A stretch of DNA of 10,575 nt from Dehalococcoidales bacterium (GTDB taxonomy: Bacteria > Chloroflexota > Dehalococcoidia > Dehalococcoidales > UBA3254). The translations under genes and the position numbers were made by a program. Below, piece by piece: positions 47-10,575 of the stretch. The stretch is from contig JAFGOB010000009.1 of the NCBI GenBank assembly GCA_016926695.1, forward strand, positions 1 to 10,575, in the 5' to 3' direction. The notes under the pieces are model-generated. The model did no database searches. It saw only the letters and a program-made list of their open reading frames with translations, and was not told the origin of the DNA. Numbering within the stretch: position 1 is the first letter of the stretch; each line of letters opens with the position of its first letter.

Positions 47-87
47 TTGTGTTAAGCCTCCCACTTGCATACTTCAACCAGGCAGGA
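1..87. repeat. Left copy of an 87-bp exact terminal direct repeat
   Basis: These 87 bases are identical, base for base, to 10489-10575. On the minus strand they hold the last 11 codons and stop of an alpha-subunit gene, a 5-base spacer, and the first 15 codons of an iron-sulfur subunit. An exact repeat at both ends, of odd length, is what a de Bruijn assembler leaves when a graph path closes on itself. It is also compatible with a tandem array or with two genomic copies of this junction. The identity is seen directly; the cause is inferred. Confidence 0.97.
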
Positions 88-2583
88 ATTATTAGCCATG
101 CCCGGGGCATTTTTGGATACCAGACGGGACGGGGTTAAGAGGTTCATGCATCCGCCCTTGTCGATGCTGCCGGCTTTGCCCGGCTCCAGCGGATCATACT
201 TGGCTCCGGCTTGATAGGAGTGTAAGAGTCCGGGCCTCACTCTTTCTGTTATCTGTGCAATTCCCAGCACTCCGCCTCGGTCGTTATAGACCTTGACAAT
301 ATCTCCATGCTGGATTCCTCGTGCGTCGGCGTCTCCGGGGTTCAGCCTGACAGGCCACCACGAATAACCGTTTTTCTTGATCCTGTGGATAGGAATATCT
401 TCCAGCCACGGGTTCTTATTATCATGATGGGTGTGATAAGAAAAACGCACGTGGGGTGTGATCATCTGAAGGGGATATTTCTTAACCAGATCCTTGGTAT
501 CGTATCCCTCCCAGCTCGGGATGTATCTCGGCATAGGAGGTCTTTCCTCATCGTTCGCATCGAACTTGGTCAGGCTTTCGGATACAAACTCGATCTTCCC
601 GCTGTAAGTCGCCAGTAAGTGGGCCTTATCGGTACCCAGATTGGGATTCATCGGGTCCGGGGTATCGCAGGGACGTCCCTCGTAAAACCAGCGATTTGAT
701 ACAGTAGGTTTGTAATCTTTGGGAAGAGGCACCACGAAATAGCCCTTCTTTTTGAATTCTTCATAGGTAAGATGCTTGTGCAGGTCGGAATAGTCGAAGA
801 TCTTCTTCATCCATTCTTCATCTGTGCGGCCTTCGGTATATTCATCGTAGATACCCAGCCTCTTGGCCAGTTCTTTGTAGATCTCCCAGTCAGCTTTTGA
901 TTCCCAGAGAGGCTCGATGCATTTATGCTGGAAAATCATAACCCTGTGATTTGTTCCGGCATTGCCGTGTCCGTAACCTCCCGGCGCCGTCCATTCGGAA
1001 AGGTCCTGACGCTCGAAGTTGGTGGAGGCGGGCAGGATCACATCGCCGAATTTAGTCTCGCTCTGCCAGTGGCAGTCCTGCATGACCACGAATTCCAGCT
1101 TGGGACTCTGGTACATTTTTACCCAGCGGTTGGTATCCGTCATGGTACTGATGAAAGAGCCGCCGTGGCGGTGTATCATCTTGATCTCGGCCCCGTTGGG
1201 TCCCGGTTCGGGATAGGTCATGGGTTTGAATCCCTGATCGAAATAGTTACCGCAGAAACCTTCTCCGCGCCAGTGTATGGGCGGATTCAGAATTGCTTCG
1301 GGAAGCAGTATGCGGTATACCTTCTGAGAAACCGTATTCCTGTTGGGAAATGCCGGATGATCGGCCACGGTTGCGAAGGCATCCCAACCGGCTGATGCAT
1401 AACCGGGCATATTGAAGCTGAAATCGAGAGGAGCGCCCATGGCTACGCCGCCCCAGATATTGACACCGGGTTTTCCCAGGCCCTGCATGGATATAAGTAG
1501 TACCATCAGTCTGGCCCATTCGGTGGCATAGGCAGCGCGGCAGGCGCCGCCTGTGCCATACATGGCTCCGCAGGCCAGCATGGTCTTCTTGGCTGCCCAT
1601 TCGCGGGCCAGCGCGACAATGGTATGGGCGGGTACATCGCAGATTTTCTCAGCCCACTGCGGTGTCCTGGGTATGCCGTCTTCTTCGCCCAGGATATGTG
1701 CTTTGAACTGTTCAAAACCGACTGTACGGTTTTCTACGAACCATTTATCATAAGTATCTTCTTTGATCCAGACGTAGGCGATGGCTTCCGCCATGGCGGC
1801 GTCCGTGCCGGGACGGGGGGCCAGCCATTTCTCACCGACATGAGCGGCGGTATAGTTGCAGAAGGGATCGATGAATACCCTCTGAATACCCAGTTCCCTC
1901 AGCCAGTGACGCCAGATAACAGTGTCCTGTGCGCAGTAGCCGCCGGCGCTGGTATTGGGATCTACCGACCAGAAAACAACCTGCTCGCAGTTTTTCAGCC
2001 CGTCAGCCAGTATATCAAAGTTATCGGAATGTCCCAGCTTCCAGTAATAACCCCAGGCATGGACTGCTCCCCAGTGCCAGCCTTCCCAGCTATCCGGATT
2101 GTCCAGCAGCTCGGTGTAGCCCAGAATGTTGTAAAAGCGGCAATAGGGTCCCATTTTATAGAAAAGCAGGCCCCAGTTGTGATGTGAGGAGGCCATGGCC
2201 GTGATCGCCGCCGGGCCGTAGGTTTTCCTGATCCTCTTGATCTCACCGGCTACCAGGTCCAGGGCTTCATCCCAGGATATGCGTACATACTCGTCCTTAC
2301 CCCGTAATTCTGTATGCCTGTCGCCATTGGGATCAAAATTCTTGCGTTTCATGGGATATTTGATCCTGTTCTCCGAGTAGACTCTCATCCTCTCGGCGAC
2401 TACATAAGGATTCAGGGTGGTCATGCGTGGATCAGAAAACTTCTTGCCCCTGGCTTCGATGGTCCATCCACCTTCATCCGTCTCATCGAAGATAATAGGT
2501 CGCATGCGGGTAATCTTGCCGTCCTTGACCGTGACCTTGACAGGACCACCCACGGTACATTGGGTAAATTCTTGTTCTGCCAT
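52..2583 (-). CDS. athL-like: Pyrogallol-phloroglucinol transhydroxylase-like large (alpha) subunit, bis-MGD molybdoenzyme (L1)
   Basis: This 843-residue protein is close to the 875-residue Pelobacter acidigallici AthL, a DMSO-reductase-family enzyme that moves hydroxyl groups between polyphenols. It has no Tat signal and no N-terminal CxxCxxxC cluster, as expected for the cytoplasmic AthL type. NPDSWEGW lies at 162-169; D164, S165 and W166 match the AthL active-site trio D174, S175 and W176, S175 being the reported Mo ligand. H134 matches H144, Y395 matches Y404, and Y537 matches Y560. Three pocket positions differ: K143 for R153, T344 for W354, and P534 for C557. The C-terminal dinucleotide-binding domain (about 705-843) ends with a G-M-A-N-N stretch also present in AthL. 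AAGGAGAG precedes the ATG. The beta subunit follows 5 bases after the stop. Family assignment is firm; the exact substrate (pyrogallol, hydroxyhydroquinone, resorcinol or another) is not. Residue matching is from memory. Confidence 0.92.
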   Translation of the reverse strand: MAEQEFTQCTVGGPVKVTVKDGKITRMRPIIFDETDEGGWTIEARGKKFSDPRMTTLNPYVVAERMRVYSENRIKYPMKRKNFDPNGDRHTELRGKDEYVRISWDEALDLVAGEIKRIRKTYGPAAITAMASSHHNWGLLFYKMGPYCRFYNILGYTELLDNPDSWEGWHWGAVHAWGYYWKLGHSDNFDILADGLKNCEQVVFWSVDPNTSAGGYCAQDTVIWRHWLRELGIQRVFIDPFCNYTAAHVGEKWLAPRPGTDAAMAEAIAYVWIKEDTYDKWFVENRTVGFEQFKAHILGEEDGIPRTPQWAEKICDVPAHTIVALAREWAAKKTMLACGAMYGTGGACRAAYATEWARLMVLLISMQGLGKPGVNIWGGVAMGAPLDFSFNMPGYASAGWDAFATVADHPAFPNRNTVSQKVYRILLPEAILNPPIHWRGEGFCGNYFDQGFKPMTYPEPGPNGAEIKMIHRHGGSFISTMTDTNRWVKMYQSPKLEFVVMQDCHWQSETKFGDVILPASTNFERQDLSEWTAPGGYGHGNAGTNHRVMIFQHKCIEPLWESKADWEIYKELAKRLGIYDEYTEGRTDEEWMKKIFDYSDLHKHLTYEEFKKKGYFVVPLPKDYKPTVSNRWFYEGRPCDTPDPMNPNLGTDKAHLLATYSGKIEFVSESLTKFDANDEERPPMPRYIPSWEGYDTKDLVKKYPLQMITPHVRFSYHTHHDNKNPWLEDIPIHRIKKNGYSWWPVRLNPGDADARGIQHGDIVKVYNDRGGVLGIAQITERVRPGLLHSYQAGAKYDPLEPGKAGSIDKGGCMNLLTPSRLVSKNAPGMANNSCLVEVCKWEA

Positions 2584-2611
2584 CAGACTTCTCTCCTTGA
2601 TTTGCCAAATT

Positions 2612-2617
2612 ATTATA
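2612..2617 (-). promoter_or_regulatory. Candidate -10 box upstream of L1
   Basis: The minus strand reads TATAAT here, 28 bases before the L1 start codon, in an A+T-rich stretch. No good TTGACA-like -35 box sits 16-18 bases further upstream, so if this is a promoter it is weak or needs an activator. The 152-bp gap (2584-2735) between the SDR gene and L1 leaves room for an internal promoter. The call rests on one hexamer and position only. Confidence 0.3.
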
Positions 2618-2640
2618 TTACTTAATACTAAGAATGAACT

Positions 2641-2656
2641 AACGGGTTCACCGGTT
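2641..2656. promoter_or_regulatory. Imperfect inverted repeat, possible operator for L1
   Basis: AACGGGT and ACCGGTT flank a two-base centre and are inverted copies with one mismatch. The element covers the region where a -35 box for the TATAAT at 2612-2617 would lie and ends 57 bases before the L1 start. Position and symmetry fit a dimeric regulator site, but a 7-base arm with one mismatch can arise by chance. Confidence 0.25.
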
Positions 2657-2735
2657 ATTACGGGGTATATCTTGAAAAGATCACGTTTGTGTATTTTTTA
2701 CCCACGTATATATTTTTAGGGGCACTAATATCAGT

Positions 2736-3497
2736 TTAACTGATAGAAGCCCCTCCATCAACATAAATGATCTGCCCGGTTATAAAGTCGGAAGCCCGTG
2801 AGGCCAGGAATATCGTGGTCCCTATGAGGTCCTCCGGTTCCTCCAGACGTCCGAGCGGGATACGGGAAAGTATCGACCTGGCTTTTTCTGGTTTTTCGAG
2901 AATGGGTTTGGTAAGTTCCGTCGCTACCACTGTCGGTGCAATGGCGTTGACCAGCACCTTGTATCTGGCCCACTCGAAAGCCAGCATGCGCGTCATGGCG
3001 TCTACTGCACCCTTGCTGGTGCCGTAGCCGACAATGCCTTCCGCCGGGTACCTTCCCCTGACAGAGGACATATTGATGATTTTGCCTCCACCCTGATCGA
3101 TCATGGCTTTGCCTACAGTCTGGCAGGTTAGAAAAACACCCCTCACATTGAAGTCCATGACCTTTTGCCAGTCGTCCAGGGGCATGGTTTCGGGTGCGCC
3201 CCGCAGCGCCAGTCCGGCGCAGTTCACCAGGATATCTATCCGCTTATAATTTTTTAACACCTGGTCTACCAGGTTATTTACTGAATTAGGTTGAGAAATA
3301 TCTACGGATATTGCCATAGCGTTTTTCCCCTGAGCCCTTATTCCAGCAGCTACCTTTTCCAGCTTGTCAAGAGTGCGGCTGGCAACTACAATGTCAGCAC
3401 CGGAGTCAGCCAGGCCTGCGGCCAGGACATTGCCGATCCCCCCGGAACCTCCGACAACAATGGCAACTTTTCCACTCAACTCAAACAAACGTGACAC
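2736..3497 (-). CDS. Short-chain dehydrogenase/reductase, candidate phloroglucinol-type reductase
   Basis: A 253-residue classical SDR of full length. The glycine-rich nucleotide loop GGSGGIG is at 16-22, preceded by V where T is usual. NCAG is at 92-95, the structural Asn in FNVRG is N117, and the catalytic triad is S145, Y158 and K162 (YGTSK). The second strand ends in A-S-R with R41, a basic residue typical of NADP(H)-preferring members. PLGR and D-G-G near the C-terminus are also classical. The start codon is GTG, chosen because AAGGAGG lies 9 bases upstream. General similarity is to the 3-oxoacyl-ACP reductase/gluconate dehydrogenase type. NADPH-dependent phloroglucinol reductases belong to the SDR superfamily, and the neighbouring transhydroxylase and diketone hydrolase make reduction of phloroglucinol to dihydrophloroglucinol the best guess. 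Fold and cofactor are well supported; the substrate is inference. Confidence 0.9.
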   Translation of the reverse strand: MSRLFELSGKVAIVVGGSGGIGNVLAAGLADSGADIVVASRTLDKLEKVAAGIRAQGKNAMAISVDISQPNSVNNLVDQVLKNYKRIDILVNCAGLALRGAPETMPLDDWQKVMDFNVRGVFLTCQTVGKAMIDQGGGKIINMSSVRGRYPAEGIVGYGTSKGAVDAMTRMLAFEWARYKVLVNAIAPTVVATELTKPILEKPEKARSILSRIPLGRLEEPEDLIGTTIFLASRASDFITGQIIYVDGGASIS

Positions 3498-3561
3498 AGC
3501 TTAATACCTCCTTATATTCAGGCATAGGCGGATAGATTGTATCTTCCGATAACCAGCGGCT

Positions 3562-3900
3562 CTAGTAGCTGGCGATTACCAGCATACTGGCCGGTTGATT
3601 GGTCTTATTCATGATAGATCGCCCTTCATTCGGAGCTATATGTAAAGCATCCATGGGATTGAGAACAAATTCTTCCGTTTTGGACTTGACCGTTACCTGT
3701 CCTTCAACAACTACATAGACCTTCTCGTTGGTCTGGTCTTCGCCGGAATATTCTACGCCGCCGCCGGGAAGAAAGTGAGAAAGCCCGACCCAGAACTTTT
3801 GAGCTCCAGTCTCGTCTTTGCCGCTTAATCTCAGGGCAGCCGTCAGGAAATGCCCTTTGGCCTCGTACGGTTTGACCTGATCAAAACACATTTTTTTCAT
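3562..3900 (-). CDS. Small single-domain cupin lacking the usual metal-binding histidines
   Basis: This 112-residue protein forms one cupin barrel: P-G-G-G at 45-48 starts motif 1, V-V-V-E-G at 63-67 closes it, and motif 2 runs about 81-100 (NPMDALHIAPNEG). The canonical G-x5-H-x-H-x3-4-E-x6-G is not met. The HxH region reads G-V-E-Y-S-G and the Glu position is K60. The motif 2 His near position 93-95 is also absent (R-S-I). H42 and H87 are the only histidines near the core besides H17. It probably does not bind metal in the standard way and may be a sugar- or phenol-binding, isomerase or sensor-like protein. AGGAAAG lies upstream of the start; M4 is an alternative. It sits between the hydrolase and SDR genes, suggesting a role on a pathway intermediate. 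No specific function can be assigned. Confidence 0.85.
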   Translation of the reverse strand: MKKMCFDQVKPYEAKGHFLTAALRLSGKDETGAQKFWVGLSHFLPGGGVEYSGEDQTNEKVYVVVEGQVTVKSKTEEFVLNPMDALHIAPNEGRSIMNKTNQPASMLVIASY

Positions 3901-3934
3901 ACTTGCTTCTTCTTTCCTACCCCCTTTTTAGAGA

Positions 3935-3969
3935 GGCCTGGAGAATGGAAAACTCCCACTCTCCAGGCC
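3935..3969 (-). other. Strong intergenic stem-loop after the hydrolase gene
   Basis: GGCCTGGAGA at 3935-3944 is perfectly inverted at 3960-3969 (10-bp stem, 15-base loop that can pair further). It begins 11 bases past the hydrolase stop codon. On the transcribed strand it is followed by TCTCTAAAAAGG, not a U-tract, so it is not a convincing intrinsic terminator. An RNA processing or 3'-end stabilising hairpin separating hydrolase and cupin expression levels is a fair alternative. Confidence 0.6.
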
Positions 3970-3980
3970 GGGCTCGACTA

Positions 3981-4820
3981 TTATTTCTTTTCTGAATCCG
4001 ACCACTTGGACTTTATATCATCGAAGTGGTGATGCATTTGTGTTACGTGGTTGCCGAAATTCTCCAGGCCAATTTGCAGATGGAAGTCTTCATGAAGAAT
4101 ACGCTTCCAGGGACGAACGGTAATCTCATGGGTAAGGCGGCGGATCATCCTGGGCTGTTTCATGATCTTTTCCGCGATTTCCCAGGCACGGGACAGGATC
4201 TTATCGCCGGGCACGATTTCATTAACCAGACCCCAGTCGAGACAGGTCTTGGCATCGACGCTGTTGACCATGAACATCATATAATTGCCGCGCTTGAGGC
4301 CGCAGATGGCCTGGATAATTAAGCCCTGCACATCGCCAGGCACCGTCGCGTCCCCGAAATGGTCGTCGCGCAGCATGAACTCCGGCACGCACAGGGTAAT
4401 ATCACTCATCATGGCGTTTTCCCAGTGCAGACCGGGGCCGTTAATGGCGCCGATGGTGGGTACCTCGATATCATAGATCCAGTTGTCCACCACTCTGCGG
4501 GCATCATGCCAGACGTTGTCGAAAATAACATTTTTATCCGGATGGTCTTCGGCTTCGGCGAAAGATTCCATATCGAAATCACCAATCCAGTACGGGTTTG
4601 TAGAAGTCAGGATGATAAGCTCGTTTTCCGGATCGTGGCCGATAGTGGTCCAGCACTCGCACATCGCCTGGTGCATCTCGAAACTCCATTTTACGGGGCC
4701 GCCCTTGGTATGCATGCGCACCTGCAGGATGCCGTTTCTGCGTTCAAAATCAAAGTGATCGGCAAAAATCTTTTTATAGTCCTCCAGCTTGGGATACGGT
4801 ACCTTATTGGTAATAGTCAT
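3981..4820 (-). CDS. Crotonase-fold cyclic beta-diketone hydrolase, 6-oxocamphor hydrolase-like
   Basis: A 279-residue crotonase-superfamily protein; residues are numbered from an upstream in-frame ATG at 4832, four codons earlier. The ATG at 4820 is preferred because GGAGG lies 5 bases before it, while 4832 has no site. The sequence follows Rhodococcus 6-oxocamphor hydrolase more closely than enoyl-CoA hydratases. W49, H54, H136, H158, D167 and E257 fall where that enzyme has W40, H45, H122, H145, D154 and E244, with identical W-to-H, H158-to-D167 and D167-to-E257 spacings. The usual acyl-CoA hydratase Glu pair is not evident. That enzyme cleaves a non-CoA cyclic 1,3-diketone by retro-Claisen hydrolysis. 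Next to a transhydroxylase and an SDR, the natural substrate would be dihydrophloroglucinol or a related ring diketone. Family is well supported from memory; substrate is inferred. A BadI-like CoA-ester ring hydrolase is the main alternative. Confidence 0.88.
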   Translation of the reverse strand: MTITNKVPYPKLEDYKKIFADHFDFERRNGILQVRMHTKGGPVKWSFEMHQAMCECWTTIGHDPENELIILTSTNPYWIGDFDMESFAEAEDHPDKNVIFDNVWHDARRVVDNWIYDIEVPTIGAINGPGLHWENAMMSDITLCVPEFMLRDDHFGDATVPGDVQGLIIQAICGLKRGNYMMFMVNSVDAKTCLDWGLVNEIVPGDKILSRAWEIAEKIMKQPRMIRRLTHEITVRPWKRILHEDFHLQIGLENFGNHVTQMHHHFDDIKSKWSDSEKK

Positions 4821-4862
4821 TCCATCCTCCATTTAAGTATTTTTCATACAGTTCTCTTATTT

Positions 4863-5819
4863 TTACTGTTTTTCCCTTTTATAAAACATAGCCAATTGGC
4901 TTAGCAGTTTCCTGTTATTTCCTTCCAGTACCTCTGCGGTGGATTTCCCCCGGTAATCATACCAGCCTTTCCCGGCTTTTATCCCCAACTCTCCGGCTTT
5001 AACCTTGCCCACCAGCAGGGGTGACGGTTCCGCAGTGTTGTTCAGTGTCTTGAACATTCTTTCCGAAACCCTCACGGAGGTGTCAAGCCCTATCATATCC
5101 TCGGTTTCCATGGGTCCCAGGCAGGACATACGGAAACCGATGCTGCCCTTGACCGCAATATCCAGGTCTTCGGGAGTAACGATGCCTTCATCCAGCAAAT
5201 AGCCTATCTCTCGCGTTAGCGCACCGGTAAGGCGGTTGACAATAAACCCGGTTGCCTCTTTCCTTACCATAGCCGGTTTTTTACCCGATTTGATCATAAG
5301 CTCGCGAGTAGTTTCCACCGTCTCACCTGAGGTCTGCGGTCCTCCGTGGATTTCTACGGTTGGAATGATATGGGCTGGATTGAAATAATGCACACCGATA
5401 AGCCTGGATGGATTTTTCATCCCCTGTGCCATTTCGGCGATGGTTAAACTGCCGGTATTACTGCTTATTATGGCCGTGGAATTATTGTCTTCCAGTTCGG
5501 CAAAGAGCTTCTTCTTTTCCTCTAATATTTCTGGAATGACCTCTACAATATAGCGGCATTGGGACAGGATAGACTTTAAAGAGCTTCCTGGTACAGGTAC
5601 TACCCTGGATGTTATTTCGGAAACAGCTTCATCTAAAAGGCCAAACTCCCGGAATTGATCGGTATTGGCCTTGATCTGAAGAAGAGCCCTGTCCAGGGAT
5701 TCCTGATCGATGTCCGACAGGTATACCATGATGCCAGCCTGTGCAAAAGTCTGGGCAATGCCGATACCCATTGTTCCGGCGCCTATTATGGCTATCCGGT
5801 CTATCAGGTTGATATCCAT
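4863..5819 (-). CDS. 3-hydroxyacyl-CoA dehydrogenase family protein (NAD-dependent)
   Basis: A 318-residue protein with the full two-domain layout. The Rossmann fold carries GAGTMG at 13-18 and D36 at the end of strand 2, favouring NAD. The family signature H-Y-F-N-P is at 144-148. Catalytic residues by family pattern are S120, H144, E156 (12 residues after H144) and N195 in G-F-I-V-N-R. The C-terminal helical domain spans about 188-315, with the usual K-G-W-Y-D-Y near 284-289. It oxidises L-3-hydroxyacyl groups. It lies 42 bases upstream of the hydrolase start, suggesting one operon. No CoA ligase or transferase is in the window, so it may act on a free acid such as 3-hydroxy-5-oxohexanoate, or on a CoA ester made elsewhere. 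Only a weak GGGA site precedes the ATG, which is placed by the N-terminal fold. Family firm, substrate unknown. Confidence 0.9.
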   Translation of the reverse strand: MDINLIDRIAIIGAGTMGIGIAQTFAQAGIMVYLSDIDQESLDRALLQIKANTDQFREFGLLDEAVSEITSRVVPVPGSSLKSILSQCRYIVEVIPEILEEKKKLFAELEDNNSTAIISSNTGSLTIAEMAQGMKNPSRLIGVHYFNPAHIIPTVEIHGGPQTSGETVETTRELMIKSGKKPAMVRKEATGFIVNRLTGALTREIGYLLDEGIVTPEDLDIAVKGSIGFRMSCLGPMETEDMIGLDTSVRVSERMFKTLNNTAEPSPLLVGKVKAGELGIKAGKGWYDYRGKSTAEVLEGNNRKLLSQLAMFYKREKQ

Positions 5820-5881
5820 TATTTACATTCCCGTCATTCTTTCCGGAGTACTAAAAACAGGTACTTATTCATGACGCCACA

Positions 5882-5902
5882 TTTCTGCCGGTCCGGCAGA
5901 AA
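5882..5902. promoter_or_regulatory. Perfect 10-1-10 palindrome upstream of the dehydrogenase operon
   Basis: TTTCTGCCGG at 5882-5891 is followed by one base and its exact inverse complement at 5893-5902. It ends 62 bases before the dehydrogenase start codon, inside the 240-bp gap 5820-6059, which holds no gene. Position and symmetry fit a homodimeric transcription factor operator controlling the genes from the dehydrogenase onward. It could instead fold as a short RNA hairpin. No clear sigma-70 or sigma-54 promoter was recognised next to it. Confidence 0.5.
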
Positions 5903-5998
5903 CTATCGAACAAATATCCCCGGTCTGCCTGGTTCAGATGAAGGCTGCGGGCTAATATGTCGCCGGGGGAAGAGGTGCCTGGCATAACCCCAGTAATA

Positions 5999-6027
5999 GA
6001 GTTCCACGGGATTACCCCGTGGAACTC
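5999..6027 (-). other. 12-bp perfect stem-loop after S_A, possible transcription boundary
   Basis: GAGTTCCACGGG at 5999-6010 is exactly inverted at 6016-6027 around a 5-base loop (ATTAC). It lies 32 bases past the S_A stop codon and about 180 bases before the next gene. The transcribed strand continues TATTACTGGGG, so there is no U-tract on that side; the plus strand has a short T run at 6040-6044. It may attenuate or process the message between the L2/S_A pair and the downstream genes. Confidence 0.6.
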
Positions 6028-6059
6028 CAGACCATAGGGTTTTTAACGGTTGAAAACTG

Positions 6060-6881
6060 TCAGGAAACCTTCTTGGAAAGCGCCAGGTCTCCTACGTTGA
6101 TATCTTTTTCTGTCGAGATGTCATCCATATCCCGTGAGAGATACCCGTCTTTCGCGACGGACAAACTATAGTTGCCGACCTCAAGTCCTTCGAACCAGAA
6201 ATCGCCGAAAACATCCGTCTTTGTGCTGGCGACTTTGCTCCCTTTATCGTTTTTCAGAGTGACCTCAGCGTCCTCCAGACATTCGTCTGCTTCCGGATCA
6301 TAGACCGCTCCGGCTACGAATCTCTTGGGTATCCCGATATAGTAGGTACGGGGGTTGGCTTTAGCTTCCGGCTTGAGTATTTCGGCCTTATCAATAAGGT
6401 CTTTGAACTCTTCTTCTTCACCGAACTTCAAAGCGCCGGTGGGGCAGGCATCAACACAGCGGGGCTCTTTCCAGCCTTTATCCAGCAGGTGAGCGCACCA
6501 GGTGCATTTCTGCGCGATCTGAAGGTCCTGGTTGAAGTAGATTACACCGTAAGGGCAGGCATCAACACAGAGTTTTTGACCGGTGCATTTATTGGGATCA
6601 ATGATTATGGCTCCGTCCGGTCTCTGGTAGATGGCCTTGGATTTACAGGCGGTAATACAGGGAGCGTCTTTACAGTGCTGGCAGATGTGATGCATATAGG
6701 CCACCTTGACCTTGGGGACTTGCCCCCTGACTATATCATTCACTTTCATCCAGAACTGCCCGGTGTCCGGCTGGGGTTTTGCGATCGGGCTCCAGTCATT
6801 AGCCACATGCTCATCTTTGCAGGCTACCTGGCAATTATAGCACCCGTTGCATTTGGTAATATCGATAATAAACGCCTTCAT
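6060..6881 (-). CDS. athS-like: Transhydroxylase-type iron-sulfur beta subunit, partner of L2 (S_A)
   Basis: A 273-residue cytoplasmic electron-transfer subunit. Residues 1-150 form a DmsB/AthS-like ferredoxin domain. Cluster cysteines are C11, C14, C17, C21; C67, C70, C75, C79; C99, C105, C109; C126, C129; C142, C146. That is 15, one short of the 16 needed for four [4Fe-4S] clusters, because Q102 replaces the middle Cys of C99-x2-x-x2-C105. AthS has 12 and three clusters, so S_A could carry three clusters plus a three-Cys site able to hold [3Fe-4S]. Residues about 186-273 form a beta-sandwich of the Cna-B/carboxypeptidase-regulatory type (F-G-D-F-W-F-E-G-L, then G-N-Y-S-L), matching the C-terminal beta-barrel of AthS. 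The ATG overlaps the L2 stop in TAATG, so translation is coupled and the two form one complex. Confidence 0.92.
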   Translation of the reverse strand: MKAFIIDITKCNGCYNCQVACKDEHVANDWSPIAKPQPDTGQFWMKVNDIVRGQVPKVKVAYMHHICQHCKDAPCITACKSKAIYQRPDGAIIIDPNKCTGQKLCVDACPYGVIYFNQDLQIAQKCTWCAHLLDKGWKEPRCVDACPTGALKFGEEEEFKDLIDKAEILKPEAKANPRTYYIGIPKRFVAGAVYDPEADECLEDAEVTLKNDKGSKVASTKTDVFGDFWFEGLEVGNYSLSVAKDGYLSRDMDDISTEKDINVGDLALSKKVS

Positions 6882-9520
6882 TATTGATCTTCACTCCTAT
6901 AAAGTATTCTTTCGAACTTCTGACCGGAACCCCTGTCGTAAGGCCGGTTGAAAGCTTCGGGATATTGTCTTCTTATGCCTTCCAGGTCTGTCTTCTCTGC
7001 CTGGCACAGGAAACCGCTGGTAACCATTCCGGCGCAGTTCTTGGAAGTAGTATTGTGCGGACATATTGTATTGATGGCTCCGCCCCTGTCGAACTCACCC
7101 GGGACTATGGGATCGTACCTTGATCCATGATCGACATAGACCACTCCCGGCATGATTCTCTCGGTGATGTATGCTCCGCAGAGTACTCTGCCTCTCTCGT
7201 TGAATAACGTGACAACATCTCCGTTTTTGATATCTCTTGCAGCGGCATCCGTTGGGTGCAGCCAGACCGGTTCATACATATAATCATCCGGTCCTCTGAC
7301 CTTACCCGTCTCTATCTCATGGAACCAGGTGTTATCATCCATCTGGGCATGAACGCGCCATCTGGGATGGTTGGAGATTACCAGCAGCGGGTATTCCTTG
7401 AACCTCTCGCTGGAAATTCTTTCATCATGAAATTCACTCTTTTCTACCCAGTGCGGTACCGGTGGTCTCTCTTTATCATCCGGGAAAGCCTTGGCCAACC
7501 GCTCGGAATAGAATTCCAGTTTGCCGCTGGGGGTGGTCATGGGGTACTTTTCGGGGTCTTCGTAGAACTCGATCATGCCGGCCGGAATTTTCTCCCATTC
7601 GGGATCAGTCGGCACCACATAATACTTGTTTTCCTTCAGCTTTTCCCATGTGCACAGACCGGCTTTCTCCACGCCTGAGCCGTCGAAACCGACTTTGATC
7701 CAGTCCTGGATAGTCTTACCCTCGTTGTATTTTTCCTTGAGTCCCATTTTATCGGCGATGGCCTCAACTATTTCATAATCGCTCATGCTCTCGCCGCGGG
7801 GTTCGATCGCTTTCTCTTCCAGGTAAACACAGTTGTACTGTACAGGCCAGTGATCGGCTCCGATGTCATCTTCCTCGAATTTGGTATTGGAGGGCAGGAT
7901 TACATCTGCGAAGAGACAGTCATTCTCCAGCCAGGGATGCTGGATAAGGATGAACTCGATTTTCTCCATCTGCATGGCGCGGTGGAAATCGTTGGGATCG
8001 TTCCAGCAGGTGCTGAAGCAGGGAGTATCGGACCACAGCATATGGATTTCATTTTTCCCGGGCCGGGGATAAACATAATGTATGAACTGGTCATCCACCG
8101 GATCCATCTGGTCCGAGCTTCCGTAAATATCATATTTACCGGTCTGGATGACCTCGTGCAGGATGGTCTTGGGGATCATATTTTCCTGTTTCCACATAAA
8201 GGGTATGTAACCCCGGTAGGCCGCACTGACCATGGGACGGATGACCGAGTTTGGCGTGAGCATTCCCACTACCCCCGGTTTGCCCGATCTGGTGCGGTTA
8301 TAGCTGCCCAGCATGGTACCTTCGACGAAGGTGAGTTGGTTGACGCCGGGTCTGCCCAGCCCCTGCATGCCCAGCAGGCAGATTTCCATACGGGCGGGTT
8401 CGCTGGAATAGGGTCCGCGGATATAGGGTCCACCGTACCCGTGGGCGACGGTGGTGCGTTTCCTGCCCCATTCCCTGGCCAGGGCTTTTATGGTCCTGGA
8501 AGGAACGCCGCATTTTTCAGCAGCCCATTTGGGAGACTTGGGCACGCCGTCTTCTTTACCCATTACATAATCGGAGAACTGCTCAAAGCCAACCACATGG
8601 GTCTTGATATATTCCTTGTCATATGTCCCTTCTACGATCCATGTATAAGCGATGGCCAACTGTAGTGCGACATCGGTATTGGGAAGTACCGGTATCCATT
8701 TGTCGGCGTGTACCGCTGCGGCGTAGTTTAAATCGGGGCTGATGTAAATTTGCTTGATTCCAAGCTCGGTATACCAGTAGCTTAACAGGCTGGGCAGGCA
8801 ACCGCCGCCGAAGCCCCAGGGTGTGGTTTCCTGGTCGCAGCCCTGCATTATAAGCATTTCGGTATTCTGGGCTACATCGTTGTAAAGATTGGAGCTGAAC
8901 TCCATGTTCAGGCCGACCGGCTCATTGCCCCAGACATGCTTGGCGCCCCAGTACCAGCCTTCCCAGCTATCCGGATTACGGATCTGCTGAGTGTATCCGC
9001 CGAGAAGCCTCATTAAATAGGTCGGGCAGCCGTGCGCAGCATTGACTACTTTACCCTCTCCATGCCCTTCTGATTGCAGCAAGATACCTTCAGGTCCGTA
9101 TTTTCCCTGGATGCGCTTGATTTCACTGACAACGATGTCAATCGCCTCGTCCCATGAGATTCTGACATATTTGCTCTTGCCGCGGTTCCGGGTATTTCTC
9201 TCACCCTTGGGATCAAAGTCAACCCTCTTGAGAGGATAAAGAATACGATTGGGTGAGTAGACCCTTTTTTTGTAGCCGGTACCATGAGGGGGTACCATCG
9301 CTTTGAGAGGCGGAATGAATGTCTTGCCGCGGGCTTCGTACTTCCAGGGATTGAACTCCTCCGGCTTGTACTTCCAATCATAGTGCAATGGCCTTATACG
9401 GACTATTTTCCCGTCCTTTACGTCCACACAGGTAACATTGGAGTTATCTCCGAAGGAGCTTAAACAGGTACCCTTGATACAGATCTTGTCCAGTGAGTCG
9501 TCATTATTTGGTTTTGCCAT
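6881..9520 (-). CDS. Divergent transhydroxylase-family molybdopterin large (alpha) subunit (L2)
   Basis: An 879-residue bis-MGD oxidoreductase of AthL length without Tat signal or N-terminal 4Fe-4S motif. It shares NPDSWEGW at 182-189 (D184, S185, W186 matching AthL D174, S175, W176), the I-E-P-x-G-E-S-M-S-D-Y-E-I block at 572-584, and the C-terminal dinucleotide-binding domain (about 710-840). Elsewhere it departs from AthL and from L1. The S-S-H-H motif reads S-E-G-H, leaving H153 as the possible His144 equivalent. The region of W354 reads Y-G-G-P-Y. The loop carrying AthL C557 and Y560 is about ten residues shorter (548-574). The pocket therefore differs, so a related hydroxyl transfer, aromatic hydroxylation or catechol-type dehydroxylation are all possible. 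AGGAGG lies 4 bases before the ATG. The partner S_A overlaps its stop. Family firm, reaction unknown. Confidence 0.9.
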   Translation of the reverse strand: MAKPNNDDSLDKICIKGTCLSSFGDNSNVTCVDVKDGKIVRIRPLHYDWKYKPEEFNPWKYEARGKTFIPPLKAMVPPHGTGYKKRVYSPNRILYPLKRVDFDPKGERNTRNRGKSKYVRISWDEAIDIVVSEIKRIQGKYGPEGILLQSEGHGEGKVVNAAHGCPTYLMRLLGGYTQQIRNPDSWEGWYWGAKHVWGNEPVGLNMEFSSNLYNDVAQNTEMLIMQGCDQETTPWGFGGGCLPSLLSYWYTELGIKQIYISPDLNYAAAVHADKWIPVLPNTDVALQLAIAYTWIVEGTYDKEYIKTHVVGFEQFSDYVMGKEDGVPKSPKWAAEKCGVPSRTIKALAREWGRKRTTVAHGYGGPYIRGPYSSEPARMEICLLGMQGLGRPGVNQLTFVEGTMLGSYNRTRSGKPGVVGMLTPNSVIRPMVSAAYRGYIPFMWKQENMIPKTILHEVIQTGKYDIYGSSDQMDPVDDQFIHYVYPRPGKNEIHMLWSDTPCFSTCWNDPNDFHRAMQMEKIEFILIQHPWLENDCLFADVILPSNTKFEEDDIGADHWPVQYNCVYLEEKAIEPRGESMSDYEIVEAIADKMGLKEKYNEGKTIQDWIKVGFDGSGVEKAGLCTWEKLKENKYYVVPTDPEWEKIPAGMIEFYEDPEKYPMTTPSGKLEFYSERLAKAFPDDKERPPVPHWVEKSEFHDERISSERFKEYPLLVISNHPRWRVHAQMDDNTWFHEIETGKVRGPDDYMYEPVWLHPTDAAARDIKNGDVVTLFNERGRVLCGAYITERIMPGVVYVDHGSRYDPIVPGEFDRGGAINTICPHNTTSKNCAGMVTSGFLCQAEKTDLEGIRRQYPEAFNRPYDRGSGQKFERILYRSEDQ

Positions 9521-9703: not shown

Positions 9704-10534
9704 TTATTTTTTCAGGACGATCTCACCCAGGTAGATGTCCTTCTGGGTTTTGGTTTTAAGGCTTCTGGGCTTGTATCCGGCAACCTCGATCTTGACGCTG
9801 TAGTCGGTATTGTCAGCCAGGCCCTCGAACTCGAAGTCGCCGAAGCCGTTGGTAGTGGCGACGCGTGTTTGGTCGTTGCCGCTGAGAGTAACCTGTAAGT
9901 TAGCGGCGCACTCGTCGATATCGCCGTAGATGACGGTACCGGCCACGAATTTCCTGGGCAGGCTGATATACTTGACCTTCTCCACGAGGGAGAACTCGGG
10001 ATGAAGGGATTCGGTCTTGCCGCCTGCGACGAGTTTGGCGACGTCGCTCTTGGGGTCGTCCAGGTCGCCGAAGACCAGTGCGCCGGTGGGGCAGGACTCC
10101 ACGCACCTGGGCACCTTTTCGCCCTTGTCCAGGAGATGAGCGCACATGGTGCATTTCTGGGGTATTTGAAGTTCTTCGTTCCACTCGATAACGCGGTAAG
10201 GGCAGGCGTCGACGATCTGTTTTTGGCCCTTGGCCTTGACGGGGTCGATGATGATGATGCCGTCAGGTCTGCGGTAAACGGCGTTGTTCTGAGCGGCCTT
10301 GATGCAGCCGGCGTTTTCGCAGTGCATGCAGGTAACGGGGGTATAGGCGATCTTGACCTTGGGGTACTGGCCTCTCTCTTTTTCGATAACCTTCATCCAG
10401 TTCATACCGGACATAGGCTGAGGGGCCGAGTAGTCTTTGTAATCGTTGCCTGCGAACTCGTCGCGGCAGGTCAAGAAGCAGTTGTAGCAGCCGGTGCATT
10501 TAGTGATATCTATTACCATTCCATATCTGGCCAT
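9704..10534 (-). CDS. athS-like: Transhydroxylase-type iron-sulfur beta subunit with three [4Fe-4S] clusters, probable partner of L1 (S_B)
   Basis: A 276-residue protein starting M-A-R-Y-G-M-V-I-D. An ATG eight codons further upstream is in frame but lies inside the preceding alpha-subunit gene; GGGAGG at 10550-10545, 10 bases before 10534, decides the start. Cluster cysteines are C13, C16, C19, C23; C69, C72, C77; C111; C128, C131; C144, C148: exactly 12, enough for three [4Fe-4S] clusters. The fourth site is erased (A81, and K-A-K-G-Q-K-Q-I in place of the third Cys group), as in AthS of Pelobacter acidigallici. Residues about 194-276 form the Cna-B-like beta-sandwich of the AthS C-terminus (N-G-F-G-D-F-E-F-E-G-L). 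The bases upstream encode the last residues and stop of an alpha subunit identical to L1, so S_B pairs with L1. Codons are more G/C-ending than in the other genes. Confidence 0.92.
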   Translation of the reverse strand: MARYGMVIDITKCTGCYNCFLTCRDEFAGNDYKDYSAPQPMSGMNWMKVIEKERGQYPKVKIAYTPVTCMHCENAGCIKAAQNNAVYRRPDGIIIIDPVKAKGQKQIVDACPYRVIEWNEELQIPQKCTMCAHLLDKGEKVPRCVESCPTGALVFGDLDDPKSDVAKLVAGGKTESLHPEFSLVEKVKYISLPRKFVAGTVIYGDIDECAANLQVTLSGNDQTRVATTNGFGDFEFEGLADNTDYSVKIEVAGYKPRSLKTKTQKDIYLGEIVLKK

Positions 10535-10575
10535 TTGTGTTAAGCCTCCCACTTGCATACTTCAACCAGGCAGGA
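10489..10575. repeat. Right copy of the 87-bp exact terminal direct repeat
   Basis: Identical to 1-87. Joining the two copies gives a closed 10,488-bp unit in which the L1 stop is followed after 5 bases by the S_B start, with no gene broken at the joint. Coding frames run through the joint without disturbance, which favours a true adjacency of L1 and S_B over a random chimera. Confidence 0.97.
10540..10575 (-). CDS. Transhydroxylase-like large subunit, last 11 codons (cut by the window edge)
   Basis: Reading from 10575 down gives S-C-L-V-E-V-C-K-W-E-A and a TAA stop at 10542-10540, identical in DNA and protein to the end of L1 (87-52). It is either the end of L1 itself across a circular or tandem joint, or the end of a second near-identical alpha-subunit gene. 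The fragment contains the ribosome-binding site used by S_B. Confidence 0.88.
   Translation of the reverse strand, partial: SCLVEVCKWEA

What the first reader, a model, noticed from the sequence alone, without database searches (positions are those of the whole stretch)
3981..4820. Crotonase-fold cyclic diketone hydrolase as the ring-opening enzyme of a polyphenol pathway
Six residues known to matter in 6-oxocamphor hydrolase (W40, H45, H122, H145, D154, E244) appear conserved as W49, H54, H136, H158, D167 and E257, with near-identical spacing. That enzyme opens a cyclic 1,3-diketone without CoA. Dihydrophloroglucinol, the expected product of the neighbouring transhydroxylase and SDR, is a cyclic 1,3-diketone. 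The gene is therefore a good candidate for hydrolytic opening of reduced phloroglucinol, and automatic annotation would probably call it enoyl-CoA hydratase.
Basis: partly seen in the sequence, partly recalled or inferred. Interest (0 to 1): 0.8.

Follow-up and report, generated by a model that had tools for sequence, protein, structure and literature searches.

The report
Crotonase-type ring opener for polyphenols
A bacterial gene that databases label as a fat-breakdown enzyme most likely makes a CoA-free hydrolase that opens the ring of a chemically reduced plant polyphenol, probably dihydrophloroglucinol, and would be a second, unrelated enzyme type for that step of anaerobic polyphenol breakdown.

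Summary
The gene (window 3981-4820, minus strand) encodes a crotonase-fold protein whose nearest solved relatives are 6-oxocamphor hydrolase (OCH, 8.5e-40) and Anabaena beta-diketone hydrolase (ABDH, about 1e-34); the best enoyl-CoA hydratase follows at 2e-12. All six named residues align to OCH W40/H45/H122/H145/D154/E244. Sequence scores, predicted structure and the BadI model speak against enoyl-CoA hydratase and BadI membership.

The context is a polyphenol module: transhydroxylases, an SDR with the Arg loop of phloroglucinol reductase, a cupin, and a dehydrogenase lacking CoA-contact residues, like the triacetate-forming dehydrogenase. Relatives in several phyla repeat the module with a BKACE or FAH-family gene. 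The hydrolase sits where the known pathway has its Mn2+ 'cyclase' ring opener (DPGC), an unrelated family.

The substrate is not settled. At least 11 of 18 genomes with a hydrolase-dehydrogenase locus also carry a DPGC-like gene, two of them a full canonical cluster. The enzyme may act on dihydrophloroglucinol or on a close analogue. The nearest named relative (86% identity) shows no DPGC-like gene, which favours dihydrophloroglucinol here. Verdict: a real, testable candidate for a non-homologous DPG cyclohydrolase; chemistry likely, exact substrate about even.

The parts
3981..4820 (-). CROT: crotonase-fold, OCH/ABDH-type, candidate CoA-independent ring-opening hydrolase; first in-frame ATG at 4832, likely start at 4820
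4863..5819 (-). 3HCDH family, triacetate-forming-dehydrogenase (TfD)-like: HBD K56 and N221 replaced (L, G), H138 and N188 kept, Arg near the N221 site; S117 is G
3562..3900 (-). small cupin, also found in canonical phloroglucinol clusters; function unknown
2736..3497 (-). SDR reductase with the SSVRG Arg loop at the position of SQR in the PGR of L105; candidate polyhydroxybenzene reductase
52..2583 (-). transhydroxylase alpha subunit, pyrogallol-phloroglucinol transhydroxylase family (4v4c, 873 bits)
6881..9520 (-). second, more divergent transhydroxylase-family alpha subunit (4v4c, 467 bits)
6060..6881 (-). transhydroxylase-type beta (4Fe-4S) subunit next to the alpha at 6881-9520
9704..10558 (-). 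another transhydroxylase-type beta subunit; its alpha would lie beyond the window edge

Best explanation
The gene encodes a CoA-independent retro-Claisen hydrolase of the OCH/ABDH branch of the crotonase fold. Proposed route: transhydroxylases turn pyrogallol-type phenols into phloroglucinol; the SDR reduces it with NADPH to dihydrophloroglucinol (a cyclic 1,3-diketone); this enzyme adds water to one ring carbonyl, with a His158-Asp167 pair as base and His136, His54, Trp49 and Glu257 holding the diketone/enolate; the C-C bond opens to 3-hydroxy-5-oxohexanoate; the CoA-free dehydrogenase oxidises that to triacetate; a BKACE (or, in marine bacteria, an FAH-family hydrolase) splits it further. 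Shown: family, fold, residue alignment, module and its recurrence, loss of CoA contacts in the dehydrogenase. Inferred: the water-attack chemistry, the cofactor, dihydrophloroglucinol as substrate, and the terminal cleavage step (no such gene is in the window).
Against: At least 11 of 18 genomes with a hydrolase-TfD locus also hold a DPGC-like PF04199 gene; two of them, the Clostridia G1083 and G1113, hold a complete canonical PGR-DPGC-TfD-TAL cluster beside a separate crotonase cluster. BKACEs in L022, L073, L074 and L080 score best as Kce, not as 3,5-dioxohexanoate enzymes, though so does the BKACE of the canonical L105 cluster; the crotonase-cluster BKACEs I read lack the Trp reported for CsTAL. 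The SDR's best PDB match is a gluconate 5-dehydrogenase (1.5e-53); 5g4k (PGR) follows at 1e-39, and the only SDR of the L022 cluster lacks the Arg. In 8 of 31 loci two other PF04199 genes (CYC1/CYC2) lie beside the crotonase. G001's one dehydrogenase match at E 1e-40 or better is not TfD-type: it keeps N221 and lacks the Arg. 8 of 31 loci show none of the module genes.
Confidence: 0.55

Rival explanations
1. Same enzyme chemistry, different ring: it opens a substituted or extra-hydroxylated dihydrophloroglucinol (for example reduced 1,2,3,5-tetrahydroxybenzene, or an alkyl- or aryl-phloroglucinol), in a pathway parallel to canonical phloroglucinol breakdown.
For: DPGC-like genes coexist in at least 11 of 18 module genomes; complete canonical cluster plus crotonase cluster in G1083 and G1113; crotonase-cluster BKACEs lack the CsTAL Trp; the divergent THa2-type transhydroxylase, without the THa type, sits with the crotonase in L022 and L020/L080.
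Against: G001, closest relative, shows no DPGC-like gene and its BKACE leans to 3,5-dioxohexanoate; canonical marine clusters also lack the Trp (L033, L041) yet pass the 3,5-dioxohexanoate cut-off (537 and 515 bits); L017 and L024 have the THa type without THa2, and the window, L001 and L074 have both.
Confidence: 0.27
2. It hydrolyses the acyclic beta-diketone triacetate (3,5-dioxohexanoate) to acetate and acetoacetate, after another enzyme opens the ring.
For: ABDH and OCH are beta-diketone hydrolases; in L013, L015, L018 and L028 the gene follows CYC1, CYC2, cupin, SDR and dehydrogenase genes without BKACE in the same stretch.
Against: The L022, L072, L073 and L080 clusters contain BKACE and nine CROT-TfD loci contain an FAH-family gene, either of which could fill that step; the two Aliiglaciecola genomes (G017, G027) without BKACE have the FAH-family gene about 11 kb from the crotonase.
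Confidence: 0.08
3. It hydrolyses cyclohexane-1,3-dione from resorcinol reduction to 5-oxohexanoate.
For: The same chemistry would serve (inference).
Against: The linked CoA-free 3-hydroxyacid dehydrogenase and beta-keto acid cleavage enzyme would have no role (inference).
Confidence: 0.05
4. It is an ordinary CoA-dependent enoyl-CoA hydratase or a BadI-type CoA-ester hydrolase, as databases label it.
For: Fold and ECH_1 Pfam match. A crotonase (EchA20) is known to open a steroid ring hydrolytically as a CoA ester (PMC6678751, passage).
Against: E-value gap; His where the ECH-like paralogue L051 has Glu; crotonase loci that appear with the BadI model score 18-34 bits against a cut-off of 467.6, and the G001 gene does not appear; the linked dehydrogenase lacks the CoA contacts.
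Confidence: 0.03

Closest known systems
6-oxocamphor hydrolase (OCH, PDB 1o8u/1szo)
   Same: Fold, six aligned active-site residues, about 31% identity in the fold alignment; no CoA needed (recalled)
   Different: OCH acts on a bicyclic camphor diketone (recalled); this gene sits in a transhydroxylase/SDR/TfD polyphenol module and lies in a clade that excludes OCH
Anabaena beta-diketone hydrolase Alr4455/ABDH (PDB 2j5g/2j5s)
   Same: Fold; the H, H, H, D and E positions kept; about 1e-34
   Different: F replaces the Trp; no polyphenol context known to me
Dihydrophloroglucinol cyclohydrolase CsDPGC (PMC10470551)
   Same: Proposed reaction and pathway slot between phloroglucinol reductase and triacetate-forming dehydrogenase
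   Different: Mn2+-dependent 'cyclase' family (PF04199), another protein family
Crotonase EchA20/ScdY (PMC6678751, passage)
   Same: Crotonase-family protein that opens a ring hydrolytically
   Different: Works on a steroid CoA ester; sequence not compared here
BadI and enoyl-CoA hydratases
   Same: Crotonase fold
   Different: CoA-ester enzymes; BadI model scores far below cut-off or is not listed

Membership tests
OCH/ABDH-type CoA-independent beta-diketone hydrolases | Closest sequence kin among solved structures | tested here: met
OCH/ABDH-type CoA-independent beta-diketone hydrolases | Active-site His/His/Asp/Glu set (plus H45 and W40 of OCH) | tested here: met
   by sequence alignment; ABDH catalytic H43, H144, D153, E243 named in PMC3584854; OCH residue roles recalled
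OCH/ABDH-type CoA-independent beta-diketone hydrolases | Fold match above other crotonases | tested here: met
OCH/ABDH-type CoA-independent beta-diketone hydrolases | Hydrolysis of a beta-diketone without CoA | not testable with these tools
   needs an assay
Enoyl-CoA hydratase | Closest to enoyl-CoA hydratases, with their catalytic Glu | tested here: not met
   H at 158 where the ECH-like paralogue L051 has E; far lower sequence score
BadI (TIGR03210) | Score over the curated cut-off 467.6 | tested here: not met
   on relatives in 5 genomes (no genome is held for the window): 18-34 bits, G001 gene not listed
BamA-type 6-oxocyclohex-1-ene-1-carbonyl-CoA hydrolase | Match to its family model or sequence | not tested
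   not run; the best 25 of 37 NCBIfam matches shown do not include it
DPGC of the PF04199 cyclase family | PF04199 domain with metal site and W20-P-Y22 | tested here: not met
   only ECH_1 found
Phloroglucinol degradation module (PGR, ring opener, TfD, TAL) | PGR-like SDR | tested here: inconclusive
   Arg loop shared, but not closest to 5g4k
Phloroglucinol degradation module (PGR, ring opener, TfD, TAL) | TfD lacking CoA contacts K56 and N221 | tested here: met
   but S117, which CsTfD keeps, is G here
Phloroglucinol degradation module (PGR, ring opener, TfD, TAL) | TAL/BKACE linked | tested here: inconclusive
   not in the window; present in L022, L073 and L080, and elsewhere in G001

The most novel reading that the evidence does not exclude
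Nature has two unrelated dihydrophloroglucinol cyclohydrolases: the Mn2+ cyclase DPGC and a crotonase-fold enzyme needing neither metal nor CoA. The crotonase version is combined either with BKACE or, in marine bacteria, with an FAH-family hydrolase in place of the acetyl-CoA-dependent lyase, giving a wholly CoA-free route from phloroglucinol-type rings to small acids.
Probability: 0.45. Interest if true: 0.75.

Novelty: new variant of a known kind. Interest (0 to 1): 0.58.

Why it matters
Ring opening of reduced phloroglucinol is the key C-C cleavage in anaerobic tannin and flavonoid breakdown (PMC10470551), which bears on peat carbon storage. Surveys that look only for the PF04199 DPGC could miss bacteria that rely on this gene, because databases call it enoyl-CoA hydratase; carriers found here include a Dehalococcoidia MAG from a fen, marine proteobacteria, Actinomycetota and Clostridia. 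The claim can be tested with one purified protein. For Pelobacter acidigallici, the classic organism of this pathway, PMC8624197 (passages) lists no gene for its dihydrophloroglucinol hydrolase.

Tried and rejected
Triacetate hydrolase was considered and lowered, because BKACE or FAH-family genes could fill that step in many clusters. Simple replacement of DPGC was considered and lowered, because many genomes carry both. The CsTAL Trp as a substrate marker was dropped: canonical marine clusters lack it too (L033, L041) yet score above the NCBIfam 3,5-dioxohexanoate cut-off. Adjacency of L001 and L038 (same genome G001) was not accepted: both contigs end inside a ChsH2-like gene with complementary pieces (residues 1-50 and 47-474 of 482), but the ends share no exact overlap. 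Promoter- and terminator-like sites in 2500-6200 were no more frequent than in shuffles; the hairpins were not tested against shuffles. Plasmid relatives are only 28-38% identical in the 30 of 33 records shown. The gene is rare: at E 1e-40 or better 2 of 301, 5 of 393, 3 of 345, 3 of 197 and 5 of 199 genomes, samples overlapping and known carriers included. A catalytic-site superposition and docking were not done.

Literature: PMC10470551, parts 1-3 of 7 and passages; passages only of PMC4959651, PMC13039779, PMC12203004, PMC3584854, PMC8624197 and PMC6678751. A 2024 AEM paper on Collinsella phloroglucinol breakdown is not held; only its reference line and a review's description were seen. No paper linking a crotonase to phloroglucinol ring opening was found in searches; their other hits were seen as listings only, and the library lacks most subscription papers. 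Residue roles of OCH and of transhydroxylase, and that 5g4k is phloroglucinol reductase, are recalled.

Full report
What is there. The window holds eight genes, all on the minus strand: transhydroxylase-type beta (9704-10558), transhydroxylase alpha (6881-9520) and beta (6060-6881), a 3-hydroxyacyl-CoA-dehydrogenase-family gene (4863-5819), the crotonase gene of the finding (3981-4820), a cupin (3562-3900), an SDR (2736-3497) and a transhydroxylase alpha (52-2583). The dehydrogenase, crotonase, cupin and SDR are separated by 42, 80 and 64 bp when the crotonase starts at 4820, consistent with one transcript. The start at 4820 has a GGAGG five bases upstream.

Neighbours. The transhydroxylase alpha at 52-2583 matches pyrogallol hydroxytransferase 4v4c with 873 bits, the one at 6881-9520 with 467 bits. 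The dehydrogenase has L and G where 3-hydroxybutyryl-CoA dehydrogenase has K56 and N221, the contacts that PMC10470551 reports missing in CsTfD; unlike CsTfD it has G at S117. Of 45 related dehydrogenase rows, 1 keeps K56 and 2 keep N221 (L114 and L117, which I read as ordinary dehydrogenases and which serve as a control); the other 43 have an Arg near that site, which I take for a carboxylate contact to a free acid (inference). The rows were collected by similarity to this module, so the count is not independent. The SDR has SSVRG where the phloroglucinol reductase of L105 has SQR; 37 of 45 SDR rows share the Arg. The 8 exceptions are L020's first SDR (37%), the only SDR of the L022 cluster (40%), and six SDRs of 27-35% identity. 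L105's SDR was taken for phloroglucinol reductase by its match to 5g4k (2.7e-149); that 5g4k is that enzyme is recalled, the PDB name says only SDR.

Recurrence. One scan of named genomes gave 31 loci (it used two short peptide patterns, so it samples the family). Within 10 kb of the crotonase, 15 of 31 have a TfD-type dehydrogenase, 17 an SDR, 9 a cupin, 13 an FAH-family gene, 5 a transhydroxylase, 8 the paired cyclases CYC1/CYC2 and 1 a BKACE; 8 of 31 have none of these, five of those on contigs that are short or end within 1 kb of the crotonase. None of the five distant-relative loci has the SDR or dehydrogenase. L022 (Clostridiales) has transhydroxylase, SDR, crotonase, thiolase, BKACE, dehydrogenase and an acetate-kinase-family gene. 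L080 (Actinomycetes, the longer piece of the L020 contig) has transhydroxylases, two crotonases, dehydrogenase, SDRs, cupin and BKACE. L073 (from the order sampled around G021) has SDR, cupin, BKACE, crotonase, thiolase and, 4 kb off, a dehydrogenase. In marine proteobacteria the module often carries an FAH-family gene and a sulfatase. Of 30 genomes searched, four had no BKACE match, G011, G017, G023 and G027, and three of these (not G023) have the FAH-family gene.

Comparison with the known pathway. PMC10470551 (parts 1-3 of 7 read) describes phloroglucinol reductase, a Mn2+ cyclase DPGC, TfD and a BKACE-type lyase. The crotonase takes the DPGC slot in L022, L073 and L080, where no PF04199 match falls in the stretch read, and in the window. 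DPGC carries Trp20 and Tyr22. The W-P-Y pattern is seen in the cyclases of L035-L037, L046, L103, L104 and L107 and of L033 and L034, while the CYC1 and CYC2 proteins of crotonase loci read x-P-G or W-P-S. Canonical marine clusters L033 and L041 have BKACEs above the NCBIfam cut-off for 3,5-dioxohexanoate (537 and 515 of 430 bits), which supports reading those clusters as phloroglucinol pathways.

The awkward result. Eighteen genomes have crotonase and TfD-type dehydrogenase in one locus: 15, plus G019, G1083 and G1113. Eleven also hold a cyclase close to these DPGC types, by similarity: G003, G009, G010, G013, G014, G015, G016, G019, G021, G1083 and G1113. None was found in G004, G005, G007, G011, G012, G017 and G027 among the places read, and not all places were read. 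For four of the eleven (G003, G009, G010, G014) the W-P-Y residues themselves were not seen. G1083 and G1113 hold a complete canonical cluster and a separate crotonase cluster. So the crotonase is not simply a replacement; the second module may serve an analogue of dihydrophloroglucinol. Against that, G001, the closest named genome (86% identity), has two PF04199 places, both read and neither DPGC-like, and its BKACE fits the NCBIfam 3,5-dioxohexanoate family best, though under the cut-off (345 of 430 bits). G001 is a MAG of unknown completeness; its one dehydrogenase match at E 1e-40 or better is of the ordinary kind and sits in a beta-oxidation-like cluster.

Judgement. Beta-diketone hydrolase chemistry without CoA: about 0.9. 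Role as ring opener of a reduced polyhydroxybenzene: about 0.8. Dihydrophloroglucinol itself: about 0.55. These are unchanged by the recount. The literature searches named under Tried and rejected found no crotonase proposed for this step, within an open-licence library.

Noticed in passing
window 3562-3900; L033-L037, L041, L042, L105, L106, L134, L136: A small cupin gene recurs in both crotonase modules and canonical phloroglucinol clusters; the word cupin does not occur in the main text of PMC10470551.
   Followed up: partly
L003-L005, L007, L009-L012, L014, L109, L110: An FAH-family hydrolase sits in marine modules, including three genomes with no BKACE match, suggesting a CoA-free replacement for triacetate acetoacetate-lyase.
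   Followed up: partly
L009-L013, L015, L018, L028; L032; L051: Adjacent paired PF04199 genes (CYC1/CYC2) without the DPGC W-P-Y signature; CYC1 has Asn where the HxGTHxD metal motif has Asp. Possibly a heteromeric hydrolase.
   Followed up: partly
window 6881-9520: Divergent transhydroxylase-family alpha subunit that in the HMMER alignment to 4v4c lacks the tyrosine recalled as Tyr404 of the known enzyme; substrate may differ.
   Followed up: partly
P0063; L021; L061 and L072; L080: Tandem, fused or paired crotonases; the second copy in L020/L080, L021 and P0063 has Gln in place of His54.
   Followed up: no
window 3935-3969: Strong hairpin (14-nt arms, 93% complementary) between crotonase and cupin without a T-run; may be a processing or attenuation site.
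   Followed up: no
L011-L013, L015, L018, L028: Sulfatase and methyltransferase-domain genes next to the marine modules, hinting at sulfated algal polyphenols as substrates.
   Followed up: no
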